IMG/VR virus record: IMGVR_UViG_3300043411_001170
Coordinates: 1-64,000 of that record
Reading direction: 5' to 3' (one strand)
Source: a virus
Length of the DNA: 64,000 bases
The stretch's first letter is position 1; each line of letters opens with the position of its first letter. The notes under the pieces were generated by a model that saw only the letters and a list, made by a program, of their open reading frames with translations, did not search any database and was not told the origin of the DNA. The position numbers and the translations under genes were made by a program. This document shows positions 1,246 through 55,408 of the stretch, in pieces.

Positions 1246-2469
1246 TTAGGATATTATTCCATTTCTTGTAAAATTACTACATCTTATTGTAGATCCATCC
1301 CAAGGCATCATTAGACTAGCTACATTAGGATCACTTGCTTGAGTAGTACCTGAAAACAGTATATGGCTCTTAGTAGATGTAGAGTCTCTAGGGTACAGTC
1401 CGTAAGTAACTCTCCAAAAATCTTGATCTGCGTGTCCAACATGAGATGTGCTTGCACATACTTGTAACGGGTATAATGGAAATTTTGAAGGGGACGTTGC
1501 AGTATCTGTTTCTAAATTCGCACGTCTTCTTTCCATTTGAGAGTCCCAACTAAAATCAACTGCTACATTTGCTGTTGGTGTGGCATTAGTTGTATTTCTA
1601 CCAATGGCACCTTCTCTTGTGCCTGTTCCTGCCGAAACGCCCCAAACATTTGTCCTATCTACAAAACTAGCGGTAGTTCTAGTATTGAGCATAAAAAGCG
1701 GGATTTCTGGACTAATATTAGAAGAATGGGGGAAGTAAAGACCGCCACCAACACAAGCCAAATCATTAAAAGCATTGTTTACATTAAAAGCAATAAACCA
1801 GTTATCTGCATCCCCGATACAGTCTATTCTTAATGACGAGGTTGCTGAACTTGTAGATAAGCCAATTGTATTTTGTTTATTCGTTGCATGGGTTCCACCT
1901 GTTTCGTTTGAGATAGGAAAGAAATAATTTGTGGGATTTCCAGCCGTTCCTTTGGCATTCCATACAGGTGTTTGTTTAGTATCAGATCCCAGCGATCCAG
2001 TAGCTGCAAAAGGCCAAGGCCCATCTGTAGCATGAGGAGATGATGCAGGAGCATCAGCAGAGGTTAATCCTGCTGCCATAGAAAAACCTACCTGAATATT
2101 TCCTGAGTTTCCTGCACTATTATAGATTAATCCAGGTGATCCAGGTGCTGTTCCAAACGCAGTTCCTGAAGCCCATTGCATGAGTACACAGTAGGGAAGA
2201 GTTCTACTAGGAGATGCTGGAAATTGAAATACTGCCCAAGCATTTTGCCCAAATGCAGAGGCTTCATCATAAAATCCAGTACCTAAAGGTGTAGGAGAAA
2301 ATGTAGCCGCGTTTCCGTTATTTCTGGCTATTTCAGTACAATGGCCTTCTGTTTCCATCTGTTTAAAGAAATCCCAGATAATCTTAAATGCTGCCTGATT
2401 TAGCTGTATCTGTGTAAGATTGGCAGGATCTAAAAAACAGTCTAGTTTGAAAACTTTTGTACCACTCAT
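1246..2469 (-). CDS. Virion-like protein, paralogue B
   Basis: This 407-residue protein is a paralogue of the neighbouring 89-1225 product. They share the motifs CTEIARNNGNAAT, NAWAVF, GFSMAA, DRTNVWG, a DFWRV-YG block and the PWDGSTIR C-terminus. This copy carries extra loop residues around positions 110-130 and 340-370, so the length difference comes from insertions rather than truncation. The start has a good ribosome site (AAGGTGG) about 8 bases upstream. It sits between the LRR gene and the other paralogue in the minus-strand tail module. The duplication suggests two related virion parts with diverged surface loops. Function is not established. Confidence 0.75.
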   Translation of the reverse strand: MSGTKVFKLDCFLDPANLTQIQLNQAAFKIIWDFFKQMETEGHCTEIARNNGNAATFSPTPLGTGFYDEASAFGQNAWAVFQFPASPSRTLPYCVLMQWASGTAFGTAPGSPGLIYNSAGNSGNIQVGFSMAAGLTSADAPASSPHATDGPWPFAATGSLGSDTKQTPVWNAKGTAGNPTNYFFPISNETGGTHATNKQNTIGLSTSSATSSLRIDCIGDADNWFIAFNVNNAFNDLACVGGGLYFPHSSNISPEIPLFMLNTRTTASFVDRTNVWGVSAGTGTREGAIGRNTTNATPTANVAVDFSWDSQMERRRANLETDTATSPSKFPLYPLQVCASTSHVGHADQDFWRVTYGLYPRDSTSTKSHILFSGTTQASDPNVASLMMPWDGSTIRCSNFTRNGIIS

Positions 2470-2493
2470 CGCACACCACCTTTAAAATATTAA

Positions 2494-2997
2494 TTAATCG
2501 TGGAATTCATATTTAATTTCACCCAATCTCGGATGTTTTTCTATGATTTTTCTTAATTCAGCCATTGCGTCTGGATTTTGCAGTCCATTTCTTGTAAGAT
2601 TAATAAAATTCAATTTCGGAAATTTCAATAGTTCTTCAAAACCACGATAATTTACAATATCATTCTTTCTCAGATTCAACATCTCAAGATTAGGAGCGTC
2701 TAAATTTCCTATACCAACAAACGAGGGAATATGACTATTTGTGAGATACAGGTATTTTAATTTTGGGGCATTAAATCCTTGAAAATCTCTAAAATTACCT
2801 ATACGTCCTCCAGTTAACCGTGCGACTTCGACATTCGGAGCCGTTATCCCCGTAAAGTGGTTTAGGGTTTCTATATAGGTATCCCACTGTCTTGCATTTA
2901 TATCTAGCCCTATTTCTCTTAATCTTGAGATAGAAGGATCGTCATCTGTTTGACGTATTTTTGCCGCTAGTTTTTTAATTGCTATTGATAAACTCAT
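2494..2997 (-). CDS. Small leucine-rich-repeat protein
   Basis: The 167-residue product has about four consecutive leucine-rich-repeat units from residue 60 onward, with recurring patterns such as PKLKYLYLTNSHI, PNLEMLNLRKNDI and PKLNFINLTRNGL. These fit the LxxLxLxxN/HxI consensus. The N-terminus (MSLSIAIKKLAAKIRQ) is a short basic amphipathic helix like those of several other small proteins in this window. I start at the ATG at 2997; an upstream in-frame TTG at 3009 is possible but less likely. It lies 21 bases after the fibre gene in the same direction. LRRs usually mediate protein binding. A fibre-associated or host-interaction role is inferred. Confidence 0.7.
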   Translation of the reverse strand: MSLSIAIKKLAAKIRQTDDDPSISRLREIGLDINARQWDTYIETLNHFTGITAPNVEVARLTGGRIGNFRDFQGFNAPKLKYLYLTNSHIPSFVGIGNLDAPNLEMLNLRKNDIVNYRGFEELLKFPKLNFINLTRNGLQNPDAMAELRKIIEKHPRLGEIKYEFHD

Positions 2998-3018
2998 GTT
3001 ACTATCCAATAGTTAGGG

Positions 3019-6000
3019 TTAGAATCCAATTTCTAACCAAGCTTTTGATAACTTTGTTATATCCGTACCTAAAGTGCCGTCATTTGTCATTCTTACTTCG
3101 TACATCGTTTCAACATCTCTTAATTCTCCAGCCCCAGATCCTACAACAAGTAATCCACTACGGTACGTTGTAGGTGAGTCACTTCCAGCACCTGTAGCTG
3201 TAAGAGTAGATCCCGTCACTAATTCTGTCCCAGGCTCATCGATATTTTGTAGATAAACAGTTCCTGTTAAAGCAGTGTCGGACATAGCTATTGTCGCACA
3301 AAATCTAAATGTTGTTCCTTGTCCATAAACAAGAGGATCTATTGGTGTATTTTCTTCAGTTAGTAAAGTAGAAGTTAAACCGTCTACTTCATTTTTACCT
3401 GCTAGATTCAAAATCTTTAGTTGTGGGAATCTAATACCTGTAGGTAGGACACCTTCATATACAAATGTTGTTGCAGTAGGAGTATTAAATCTGGGCAAGA
3501 TATTCGGAATACTAACATGGGTGATCCCAATAAATCTCAATTCGCTTCCTGCACCGTCATCTTCTGAAATATATATGTTTTGTGGGCTAGGTCCGAGTAC
3601 AGATATTTTAGTATTTGTCACAAGTACATTTAATGTCGAAGCAGATCGTGCAACAAAAATTGGAACATCTACCGTACCAGAGGCTGTTAGAATATGAATC
3701 GAGCAATTATTTAATACCGTTGAATTTGATCCGAAAGTATCGTCGTGACAAATAGCTGAGACAACCGAAGTAGATGCACCATCATTCTGACTAATTTCAA
3801 GGATACATTCGCTTAAGTTAATGGCACCAGCTACTACTGCTGTATCTTTGACAGTTATTGCAGCTATTTCTTGATCTTGACAGTCAGTACCTACAACCAA
3901 AGTACATTTCCTCAAAAAGATCTCATTGTCCGAGGATGTTGCTCGATATATAGCGGCGTAAAAAGTTCCAGAAGGAGTTGCGTGTGAAGCGGTGAAACTA
4001 AATCCGCTATTGTTGGCAACTAAAGTTCCCCCATTGATTCTAACCGCACTAGAATCACCTGTTTCTGCATCTTTTGCGATAGACACATTTACATTATTCA
4101 ATTCAGTGTACGAGATATTATTTATAATCAAAGCTGCTTGGTTAGGGACCACTTTAGCGGGAGTGCTCAACAAAGTAACGTCTTTTAAAGTACAGCTAGA
4201 GTTAGCAGTTACAATGACTTGAGTAATAATTGTCCTATCACCACGTCCAGCTAACGTGCATTGATCTGGCATGGTTACAATTTCGTTGTACGTTCCTGCT
4301 TCAGCAAAGATAAGAACATTTGTCTGTGCAGCCGTTATAATATCAGCACATGCACCATTAATTGATTGATATGGATGTTCTTGATCGAACATACTCAATC
4401 CAGTCCTTGTGTCTGATGCACGTTCATGTCCAGAAGATACCCATACTGTTTTTGCATAATTACTGGTTATTGGGAATCTAATACCCTGCACAGTTCCACT
4501 ATGATTAAAAATAAGAGTTGTCCCAGAGAAACGCTGTGGAATACTGGATTGTGGTTCTAAATAATGTTCTTCTGCAATAAATATTTGAATACTTCCGTTA
4601 TCATCTTCAGATACGAAATTATCTATTACAACAGTGTTAAATAAAATCGTGTTATTGGAAGCACTAAGTACAGTAACTGCATCCAATAATGAATATAAAA
4701 TTATATCATTTCCTGCTGCAAGGGATTCCAATTGGACATAGTTATTAGATGCTTTTATGTTTCTAACACCACCTGAAGTATCTGAAGAAATGAAAGATAA
4801 CTTACCAGTAGAAGCTCCATTTAAGCATCTAACGTGTACTTTACATGAGTCAATAAATATTTTGTTTGCGTTCCCTGAAGTGGTTCCGTAAATCGCACAG
4901 AAATTATCAGCAACTGTTGCACTATTCAATGATAATATTAAGTTTGAATTACGAATATCTACAGTATCCGAATTTCCAGATATCTCTATCAATGAATAGA
5001 ATCCAGTTCCAGGCCCAGTTAAAGATCCTGTAAATGTAACAGTTGTGTTGTTCAGAACAAGAGTAGAGGTAGCCCCTGTTATTTTTATACTGGTCTGATC
5101 TGTCCCAACAGCAGTTCTGGTACTTGATACAGTACAGTTATCTAATGTTACCTGAGCATTAACAACTTCTAATGTTAAGGTATTTGGGACTACTGTTGTA
5201 CCTGTATTTTCTATTTTTAGATCTTTTAGAGTAAATCCTAAAAATCCTGAGCATCCGACGTTAGAAATTATAGTTGTCGGACCCTCACCAATAAGATTGA
5301 CGGAAAATGCAGATAAGGTAACATACTCATCGTAAGTTGCTGCCGATATTTGAATAGCAGTACCTGCAACAGATACTGCATCAACAGCAGCCTGAATTGT
5401 TGCAAATGGATTCTCCATATCATATGGGTCTAATCCTGTTCTCGTATCCGTAGCCCTTTCGTGATTTTTCGCAACATAAATTGTTTTAGCGTAATTACTG
5501 GAATTTGGGAATTTAGTACCATCTGATAAAGTTCCCGTATGAACGTAAGTTCCAAGAGTAGCACCTATTCTAGCAGGTGGTACTGTTCCTGTGGGAAAAT
5601 CAGCCCATACAACATCTAATAATTTAAGTGTATTTCCTACTTGTTCAGAAGAACCTGCACCTGTAGGTGCTTGTCCTAGCACAAAAGTAGGGGAACTAAA
5701 AACAACATTAACTGTCCCAGAAGAATTCACAACAGCAGGAGTAATTGTTCCAGTACCACCCGAATTAAATCTAGGATAGGCACTTATACCACGAAGGTCT
5801 ACGTTACCCTGAGATGCTCCAATAGCACCAAATCCTGCTGCAATACCTGTAGGTCCAGAAGCTACACCATCGAAACTACCTGATAAAGATCCACCACCTA
5901 AAGAAAGGATATCATTAGCGGCATTGGTTCCTTCATGAAGGATACCATATACTTTTTGTGCGGCAGCATTTGACGAAGAGTAACAATCACAGTCCTGTAA

Positions 6001-53683: not shown

Positions 53684-54415
53684 ATGTCCGAAAATCAAAA
53701 TACAGACTTGTCAGATTCTCAGTTTCAAGAAGAGTTGGAAAAATATGCTGACAGTATTTATAGCAGCATCTCAAAATTAGAAGTAGAATTGGATCAAGAT
53801 CCATTAGTTCATGGTCCAGCAGCTTTAAATAAAAAAACAGCAGTGGCTAGAAATTTCCTAACGTCAGCTACACATATGCACATGGAAGTATCTAACCATT
53901 TACGATCTGCAAAACGACAATTAATTTACGAAGAAGGTATCCTTGATGCAAAAATTAAGGATATTGTCATTAATGATAAGACAGCTAGAGGGTACTCTTC
54001 TATCAAAGAAAGAGAATATTATGCCCAGCTACAACATAAAGAAGGAGTCATTAAACTTAATAACTTAAAACAATATGTTCAAAATCTTGAATTTCTATTA
54101 GAAGCTATTAAACTAAAAATAGCTGACCTAAAAGATGTTCAGGTACGTGTTCAAAATCAAGTTCGTCTATGTCAAGACGAACTCAGTACAGGAAATAAAT
54201 GGGGAAATCAAGCATCATCCTTGAAAGATGAAAAAAACGCTAATAAATATCTTGAGTTCAAGAAAAGTATCCAGCAGAGAAAAGATACTGAGATACTTAT
54301 TTCTAGTAAGGACAGCGGCTGTCCTATTCCAGAAATACTGTTACCTATGAATAACACTCAAGATTCTGCGTCTAATGACATATTAGACGATGTGGATGCA
54401 TTTTTAAACAGTTGA
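53684..54415 (+). CDS. Coiled-coil protein before the SSB-like gene
   Basis: This 243-residue protein is almost all helix with heptad-like spacing (about 70-205, rich in K, E, Q and L). The acidic N-terminus is SENQNTDLSDSQFQEEL and the C-terminus is NDILDDVDAFLNS, an acidic, hydrophobic tail. Its place immediately before the SSB-like gene and after the helicase suggests a recombination accessory (mediator) protein, but no family match is evident. The ribosome site is weak (AGGG). It is followed by the structured leader of the SSB-like gene. Confidence 0.55.
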   Translation: MSENQNTDLSDSQFQEELEKYADSIYSSISKLEVELDQDPLVHGPAALNKKTAVARNFLTSATHMHMEVSNHLRSAKRQLIYEEGILDAKIKDIVINDKTARGYSSIKEREYYAQLQHKEGVIKLNNLKQYVQNLEFLLEAIKLKIADLKDVQVRVQNQVRLCQDELSTGNKWGNQASSLKDEKNANKYLEFKKSIQQRKDTEILISSKDSGCPIPEILLPMNNTQDSASNDILDDVDAFLNS

Positions 54416-54433
54416 TCGGTAGTATAAGTACAA

Positions 54434-54583
54434 GCAGCAAGTTTTAATTTCTAAACTTGTTGCAAGTAATCGCCAAAATCTAATATAGAAACCGAGGGCA
54501 GTTAGAAGCGTCAAAGAGAAAAAAACCTGTAAAGGTGAACCTCAAAAAGACAAAATTGCTTCTAACTTAGACCATGAGGTTCA
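54434..54583 (+). promoter_or_regulatory. Leader with hairpin and pseudoknot-like pairing before the SSB-like gene
   Basis: An 11-bp hairpin spans 54434-54463 (8-base loop, one G-U). Downstream, AGTTAGAAGC (54500-54509) is complementary to GCTTCTAACT (54558-54567), and TGAACCTCA (54536-54544) is complementary to TGAGGTTCA (54575-54583). Both are perfect (10 and 9 bp) and interleaved, so both forming gives an H-type pseudoknot with loops of 26, 13 and 7 bases. Alternatively they are competing structures. The ribosome site GGAGA begins 3 bases after the last stem. Phage T4 gene 32 is autoregulated through a leader pseudoknot. Similar autoregulation here is inference. Confidence 0.7.
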
Positions 54584-54595
54584 ACGGAGAGAAAA

Positions 54596-55408
54596 ATGGC
54601 AACAACACTTAGTTTTGATGATCGTGACTTGCAATCTTCTGGTAAGACACCTTGGCTCAAGCTTGCTGATAGTAAGCCTGTGCGTGTCAGCTTTGCGAGT
54701 TTTGCCGTTGATAAGAACGGTGATCCTGTCTCTAAGGTCGATTCACAGAAAAAAACTCCTGTGTATCTTAAAGAAGGATCTGATGGGAAGTACGTTGACG
54801 AGCAAGGATTTGACGTTCCAAAGGAAAATGTAAAGGATGCATTTCCAGAAGTCGTCGAAGAACGTGGATATTTTATTAAAGGTGTTGGTTATATTACCGA
54901 AACACCTGATGTAAAAGAATACATGAGTGGAAAAGAATCTGAGCAAAGGTATGCTACTGTAGTTGTACAGTGGAATGTTCTCGATGACGAGAAGCCTAAG
55001 TCAACCAACGACTATACTGTATCTGTCTTCGGGTTTTCTGTAAAAGTTTTACAGAAGATTATTTTTAATAATAAGAAGTGGCCTATGGTGAAGTACGATG
55101 TCAACCTAAACAAAACAGGTAATGACATCACTCCTTCTCCAGAAAGTGATAATCTTTTTGTGTGGGTTCGTGAGAACAAACCAGAGCTTTTTGCAAAGCT
55201 TTGGGAATCCATTAAGAAGGTTAAACCTCAAGCACTTCCAACTCGCTCTATGGAATCGGAACAAATTAGGAAGAAATTGAATGGTGCTTCTGGAAGCACA
55301 GAAGAATCTTCCGATAAGAAACCGAAGCCACAAGTTGATACGTCCAAGGCGTCAAGAGAAATTGAGGGTAAACTCAATAATTTGACGGTAGAAGGTTTGC
55401 CATTCTAA
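54596..55408 (+). CDS. SSB-like single-stranded DNA-binding protein candidate
   Basis: This 270-residue protein begins MATTLSFDDRDLQ and has several OB-like strands in the first 170 residues (KPVRVSFASFAVDK, YATVVVQWNVLDDE, YTVSVFGFSVKVL). A Pro/Ser/Lys-rich linker (GSTEESSDKKPKPQVD) follows, then a C-terminus ending TVEGLPF. A hydrophobic Pro-Phe tip after a disordered linker is the hallmark of bacterial SSB tails, which bind partner proteins. GC-richer codons, a long structured leader and neighbours for RuvC, RecA and helicase fit an abundant SSB-like protein. No OB family was confirmed, so the call is tentative. Confidence 0.6.
   Translation: MATTLSFDDRDLQSSGKTPWLKLADSKPVRVSFASFAVDKNGDPVSKVDSQKKTPVYLKEGSDGKYVDEQGFDVPKENVKDAFPEVVEERGYFIKGVGYITETPDVKEYMSGKESEQRYATVVVQWNVLDDEKPKSTNDYTVSVFGFSVKVLQKIIFNNKKWPMVKYDVNLNKTGNDITPSPESDNLFVWVRENKPELFAKLWESIKKVKPQALPTRSMESEQIRKKLNGASGSTEESSDKKPKPQVDTSKASREIEGKLNNLTVEGLPF

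What the first reader, a model, noticed from the sequence alone, without database searches (positions are those of the whole stretch)
54434..54600. Interleaved 10-bp and 9-bp stems (possible pseudoknot) abutting the start of an SSB-like gene
AGTTAGAAGC/GCTTCTAACT and TGAACCTCA/TGAGGTTCA are both perfect and interleaved, so they can form an H-type pseudoknot ending three bases before the ribosome site. An upstream 11-bp hairpin completes the leader. The encoded protein has an SSB-like Pro-Phe tail. In T4 the unrelated gene 32 SSB is autoregulated through a leader pseudoknot, so this may be a convergent solution. The two stems could instead be a two-state switch, since the 7-base third loop is tight for a 10-bp stem.
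Basis: partly seen in the sequence, partly recalled or inferred. Interest (0 to 1): 0.8.

Follow-up and report, generated by a model that had tools for sequence, protein, structure and literature searches.

The report
Structured RNA leader of phage SSB gene
The start of this phage's single-stranded-DNA-binding-protein mRNA folds into a stem that, in varied sequence, recurs at the same place in dozens of distantly related large phages, which suggests that these phages control that protein through its own mRNA, as phage T4 does; the extra pseudoknot seen here is real as sequence but not shared by the relatives.

Summary
The 10-bp (54500-54509/54558-54567) and 9-bp (54536-54544/54575-54583) perfect stems interleave just before the Shine-Dalgarno sequence of 54596-55408. 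No leader shuffle of 5000 reproduces the pair. The protein belongs to an uncharacterised family. About 60 leaders from large phages with the same gene order (RecD-like helicase, unknown gene, SSB, RuvC-like, RecA) were compared. They keep a stem (P1) ending mostly 11-30 nt before the start codon, often enclosing a short GTC...GAC helix (P2). P1 exceeds chance (Fisher 2e-8), unlike four control genes. It shows compensatory changes, was replicated on new leaders, and in one subfamily is the only significant copy in a 436-kb phage record. The window's 10-bp stem with its GTC/GAC is the likely P1/P2 counterpart. Its 9-bp pseudoknot stem has no general counterpart in relatives (Fisher 0.92) and no close relatives were found to test it. 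Its energy is about equal to the nested fold. Most likely reading: a cis-acting translational operator of a gp32-like SSB, with a pseudoknot elaboration here. Autoregulation is inferred, not shown.

The parts
54418..54431 (+). GGTAGTATAAGTAC, possible counterpart of the GGTAA/GCGTAA promoter-like element that relatives carry in the same intergenic region (weak)
   Evidence: position after the upstream stop codon; in relatives GCGTAA recurs, strand-biased, just before many genes; in the window the motif is not enriched
54434..54463 (+). upstream 11-bp hairpin (arms 54434-54444 and 54453-54463, extended by UAC 54429-54431/GUA 54466-54468)
   Evidence: many relatives also have a hairpin upstream of their GGTA element (by inspection); no terminator signature in the window
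54500..54509 (+). stem S1 (= P1 of relatives), 5' arm AGTTAGAAGC
54510..54512 (+). P2 5' strand GTC
   Evidence: most enriched complementary 3-mer inside P1 across leaders, window included; replicated on new leaders
54536..54544 (+). stem S2 (pseudoknot) 5' arm TGAACCTCA, inside the P1/P2 loop
54549..54551 (+). P2 3' strand GAC
54558..54567 (+). stem S1 (P1) 3' arm GCTTCTAACT
54575..54583 (+). stem S2 (pseudoknot) 3' arm TGAGGTTCA, 2 nt before the Shine-Dalgarno
54586..54589 (+). Shine-Dalgarno GGAG
   Evidence: sequence
54596..55408 (+). SSB-like protein, 270 aa, gp32-fold family by its homologue's model
   Evidence: homology to L002 5723-6448 E=8e-11; family of 30+; homologue model matches T4/RB69 gp32; same gene order as relatives

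Best explanation
The leader 54413-54595 is the cis-acting RNA operator of a gp32-like SSB gene. The mRNA forms stem P1 (10 bp) with an inner GTC/GAC helix just upstream of the Shine-Dalgarno; this P1/P2 element is the ancestral part, found at the same place in many large phages. In this lineage a 9-bp pairing of the P1 loop with the stretch between P1 and the Shine-Dalgarno can add a pseudoknot. When free SSB exceeds the available single-stranded DNA, the protein binds the folded leader, spreads onto the A-rich ribosome site and shuts off its own translation. Shown: sequence, family-wide stem, covariation in subfamilies, specificity for the SSB gene, gp32-like fold of a homologue. Inferred: that the window's stem is homologous to P1, that the pseudoknot forms, that the leader is RNA-level control, and that the ligand is the SSB itself.
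For: P1-type stem at a fixed place in SSB leaders, Fisher 2e-8 over 33 leaders, with upstream regions of RuvC, RecA, RecD and the unknown gene not significant. Validation on 22 new leaders, Fisher 0.025. GTC/GAC inside P1 in 12 of 39 leaders against 4 for the next of 64 three-mers, window included; replicated 5 against 1, and 8 against 5 at a laxer cut. In a subfamily of 9, 100% of cells paired, 4 pairs with changes on both sides, covariation score reached by 0 of 500 shuffles. The model of that subfamily finds only the SSB leader in a 435,804-base phage record (E=1.4e-10, next 0.96). Window leader z=-4.6. Only strong PDB fold matches of a homologue are T4 and RB69 gp32, probability 0.98-0.99. 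T4 precedent: pseudoknot 5' of an unstructured ribosome site, bound by gp32 (PMC3014915, PMC535899).
Against: The window leader does not match the covariance model, so its membership rests on gene order, position and the GTC/GAC frame. The pseudoknot stem has no general counterpart in relatives. The window protein's own model found no PDB match; it has no Cys or His and so no gp32-type zinc site. No binding or expression data exist. T4's operator differs in size, place and sequence. The in-vivo mRNA 5' end in the window is unknown; no promoter motif was recognised. P1 counterparts in relatives were partly chosen by eye.
Confidence: 0.55

Rival explanations
1. A protein-independent 5' structure: P1 near the mRNA 5' end protects the SSB message from decay or tunes ribosome access (or senses temperature), with no SSB binding.
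For: P1 lies only about 10 nt after the promoter-like GTA element in most relatives, i.e. near the expected 5' end; P1 sequences vary widely while the pairing is kept, as for a purely structural role.
Against: The internal GTC/GAC and, in one subfamily, much of P1 are conserved in sequence, which a plain stability stem does not need; it is confined to the SSB gene rather than spread over abundant mRNAs.
Confidence: 0.22
2. The two stems are mutually exclusive states of a switch (S1 alone or S2 alone) that opens or closes the ribosome site.
For: The stems interleave and could exclude each other; the 7-nt loop 3 is short for a 10-bp stem.
Against: S1-containing folds beat S2-containing ones by about 10 kcal/mol, and a pseudoknot estimate is about equal to the nested optimum (-46.1 against -46.6; local -25.2 against -23.6). 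The 13-nt loop 2 relaxes the geometry. Relatives show no alternative second stem.
Confidence: 0.08
3. The 9-bp second stem is a chance match and only P1/P2 matters.
For: No counterpart in relatives; p=0.005 given S1, not overwhelming for a feature picked out of a 64-kb reading; 2 of 12 shuffled windows hold a 10/9 pseudoknot somewhere.
Against: It is perfect over 9 bp, fills exactly the stretch between P1 and the Shine-Dalgarno, and ends 12 nt before ATG, close to where P1 itself ends (11-16 nt) in many relatives.
Confidence: 0.4
4. The repeats act in DNA (replication or recombination site, cruciform, single-strand hairpin in a replication gene cluster), not in RNA.
For: The locus is a replication/recombination cluster. 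A test of G.U against A.C tolerance did not favour the sense RNA strand.
Against: Position is fixed relative to the start codon and downstream of a promoter-like element, as for an mRNA leader; absent at the neighbouring gene starts.
Confidence: 0.07

Closest known systems
T4/RB69 gene 32 translational operator (leader pseudoknot bound by gp32)
   Same: Leader of a phage SSB gene; fold upstream of the ribosome site; possible H-type pseudoknot in the window; the protein family is gp32-like by fold.
   Different: T4: a ~28-nt pseudoknot near -67 followed by >40 nt with UUAAA repeats (PMC535899, PMC3014915). Here: P1/P2 directly at the Shine-Dalgarno, long loops, no UUAAA repeats, pseudoknot not conserved in relatives, no sequence similarity found.
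T4/RB69 gene 43 operator (hairpin bound by DNA polymerase)
   Same: A simple hairpin upstream of the ribosome site of a replication gene, as P1/P2 is in most relatives (PMC3014915).
   Different: Different protein; 16-18-nt hairpin about 40 nt upstream with a UAAC loop.
STAXI motif (tandem pseudoknots near SSB, topoisomerase and integrase genes)
   Same: Pseudoknots near SSB genes (PMC2864571).
   Different: STAXI is repeated two or three times; here a single one, and no Rfam family matches the leader.

Membership tests
gp32-like phage SSB (protein) | gp32-type OB-fold core | tested here: met
   for the homologue L053 (23% identical to the window protein): top PDB matches 8gme_A E=1.1e-3 and 2a1k_A/B, probability 0.98-0.99, TM only 0.39-0.46; viral library matches include annotated ssDNA-binding proteins
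gp32-like phage SSB (protein) | same match for the window protein itself | tested here: not met
   model of the window protein, pLDDT 76, no PDB match with E below 0.2; linked to L053 only through the family alignment
gp32-like phage SSB (protein) | zinc site (T4 gp32 is a Zn(II) protein) | tested here: not met
   the window protein has no Cys and no His (translation); some relatives have conserved Cys/His
gp32-like phage SSB (protein) | binds single-stranded DNA | not testable with these tools
   needs purified protein
P1/P2 SSB leader element of large phages (defined here) | lies between the homologous upstream gene and the SSB gene in the same gene order | tested here: met
P1/P2 SSB leader element of large phages (defined here) | stem with 3' arm about 11-30 nt before ATG | tested here: met
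   28 nt in the window; 11-30 nt in 29 of the 30 relatives tabulated
P1/P2 SSB leader element of large phages (defined here) | GTC/GAC helix inside the stem | tested here: met
P1/P2 SSB leader element of large phages (defined here) | match to the covariance model of one subfamily | tested here: not met
   best window score 0.3 bits; no match in the whole record
T4 gene 32 operator | compact leader pseudoknot | tested here: inconclusive
   sequence allows an H-type pseudoknot, energy about equal to the nested fold, not conserved
T4 gene 32 operator | UUAAA/UAAA repeats 3' of the pseudoknot | tested here: not met
   54584-54595 is ACGGAGAGAAAA
T4 gene 32 operator | bound by its own SSB, translation repressed | not testable with these tools
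   needs experiments
STAXI and other Rfam families | match to a curated covariance model | tested here: not met
   no match in the window or in 10 relatives, only chance-level matches on the leader

The most novel reading that the evidence does not exclude
A previously undescribed family of cis-regulatory RNAs, P1 with an inner GTC/GAC helix, controls gp32-like SSB genes across a wide group of large and huge phages, so that SSB autoregulation through an mRNA fold is widespread and possibly as old as the gp32-type SSB; in the window's lineage it has become a pseudoknot.
Probability: 0.45. Interest if true: 0.75.

Novelty: new variant of a known kind. Interest (0 to 1): 0.6.

Why it matters
Autogenous control of an SSB through a leader pseudoknot is textbook knowledge from T4 and its relatives, where it is not even universal (RB49 shows no sign of a pseudoknot, PMC535899). 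Finding a recurrent leader fold at SSB genes in dozens of uncultivated large phages, with a protein that looks gp32-like, makes it testable whether this control is an old and general device of phage replication. It also gives a defined set of RNA-protein pairs for study; the T4 review notes that the gp32-RNA complex has not been solved.

Tried and rejected
Fold search with the window protein's own model gave only noise, so a homologue was modelled. TATAAGTA as a T4-late-like promoter in the window: not enriched; no k-mer stood out in window leaders; no sigma-70 promoter or terminator pattern at the leader. Loop-to-downstream and upstream-to-loop pairing as a general pseudoknot of the family: not above chance. 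MAFFT could not align the leaders structurally across subfamilies, so family-wide tests used shuffles and position instead, and formal covariation was counted only in one subfamily. G.U against A.C tolerance to decide the strand of action: uninformative because leaders are A/C-rich. Rfam gave no match. First constrained folds were not applied correctly and were redone.

Full report
Observation. Both stems are exactly as described and interleave. The 10/9 arrangement is unique on the + strand of the window and absent from 5000 leader shuffles. The second stem, given the first, has p=0.005. The 170-nt leader folds far better than shuffles (z=-4.6) and its stem ranks first among 53 gene starts of the window.

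The gene. The 270-aa product matches no Pfam, PHROG or PDB sequence family at a usable level. Its neighbours are a RecD-like helicase, a RuvC-like resolvase and a UvsX/RecA-type recombinase. The same gene order occurs in the 485-kb uncultured phage LR745208.1, whose protein at the same place is homologous (E=8e-11). A RecA-based scan brought 80 loci from IMG/VR, many of them from phages of 100-500 kb, and 34 distinct homologues of the protein. The window sequence is an outlier at about 22% identity. AlphaFold2 of the homologue in L053 is confident (core pLDDT above 90). Its only strong PDB matches are T4 gp32 and RB69 gp32 (probability 0.98-0.99, E about 1e-3 to 6e-3, TM 0.39-0.46), and the viral library adds annotated ssDNA-binding proteins. 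The window protein's own model is poorer and finds nothing. I therefore take the family as gp32-like SSBs, with the window's assignment one step removed.

Anatomy of relatives' leaders. Between the upstream gene and SSB lie mostly 77-138 nt, against 180 nt in the window. The common order is: often a G-rich hairpin; a GCGTAA/GGTAA/GAGTAGA element; about 10 nt; a stem P1 of 5-10 bp; inside it often GTC...GAC; then the Shine-Dalgarno and ATG. GCGTAA also occurs just before several other genes of the same phages and only on the sense strand in most loci examined, so it is probably a phage promoter element rather than part of the RNA. This is an inference.

Tests. A fixed stem statistic (3' arm 9-29 nt before ATG, loop 14-50 nt) against dinucleotide shuffles gives Fisher p=2e-8 over 33 leaders. 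The same test upstream of RuvC, RecA, the unknown gene and RecD gives p=0.06, 0.47, 0.43 and 0.10, against 2.5e-7 for SSB. Leaders are related to each other, so these values are optimistic, and P1 in several GC-rich leaders is individually weak. Among all 64 complementary 3-mers framed by a stem of at least 6 bp, GTC/GAC occurs in 12 of 39 leaders, the next in 4, and the window's 10-bp stem is one of the 12. A second scan gave 22 further leaders: stem test p=0.025, GTC again first (8 against 5 at the laxer cut, 5 against 1 at the stricter).

Covariation. In a subfamily with consensus TGACGGAACCT-GTC-loop-GAC-nnn-GTTCCGTCC, a covariance model built from six sequences finds three more SSB leaders. 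On nine sequences all cells are paired, four pairs change on both sides, and the covariation score is not reached by any of 500 shuffles or slid versions. L053 and L043, 92% identical in protein, differ by two full double substitutions and one C-G to U.G change in P1 without breaking it. In the 435,804-base record of L127 the only significant match is the SSB leader (E=1.4e-10, next 0.96). The window does not match this model.

The pseudoknot. Pairing of the P1 loop with the stretch 3' of P1 is not above chance in relatives (Fisher 0.92; only L006 and the window below 0.05). In the window an estimate with a standard pseudoknot penalty puts S1+S2 at -46.1 against -46.6 kcal/mol for the nested optimum, and at -25.2 against -23.6 for the local segment. 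It is therefore plausible but undecided. S2 alone is about 10 kcal/mol worse than S1. Loop 3 is 7 nt, but loop 2 of 13 nt relaxes the geometry; this point rests on general knowledge of pseudoknots.

Interpretation. T4 gp32 represses its own mRNA by binding a leader pseudoknot and then spreading over the unstructured ribosome site (PMC3014915, PMC535899). The leader described here sits at the same kind of gene, is confined to it, and mixes structural with sequence conservation. A translational operator for the SSB itself is the most likely reading. Binding, repression and the RNA level of action are not shown. Nothing in the papers I could search describes this element, and Rfam holds no match. 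Both are limited searches.

Noticed in passing
L002 (LR745208.1) 2074-4863: The RecD-like helicase reading frame carries an insert resembling a mini-intein (..DECFHYKQSILTESG...HNYVAGNVIVSNCSM..) in its Walker B region; the window's helicase has none.
   Followed up: no
L002 6522-7238: An HNH-endonuclease-like reading frame sits between the SSB-like and RuvC-like genes of LR745208.1, as a homing endonuclease would; the T4 gene 32 region also hosts one (segG, PMC535899).
   Followed up: no
L003, L008, L028, L053 and others, e.g. L008 611, 5945, 9853: GGGCGTAA recurs on the sense strand shortly before start codons (sometimes about 8 nt), with no antisense copies in several loci: a probable phage promoter element giving very short leaders.
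   Followed up: partly
window 54525-54536: ACCU-GUAA-AGGU, a small hairpin with a GNRA-type loop, lies inside the P1 loop and shares its last base with the S2 arm.
   Followed up: no
window 54596-55408: The window protein has no Cys or His and a unique ..LPF end, while relatives have conserved Cys/His and acidic ..MLDDIL-type tails: the window lineage may have changed both metal binding and tail partners.
   Followed up: no
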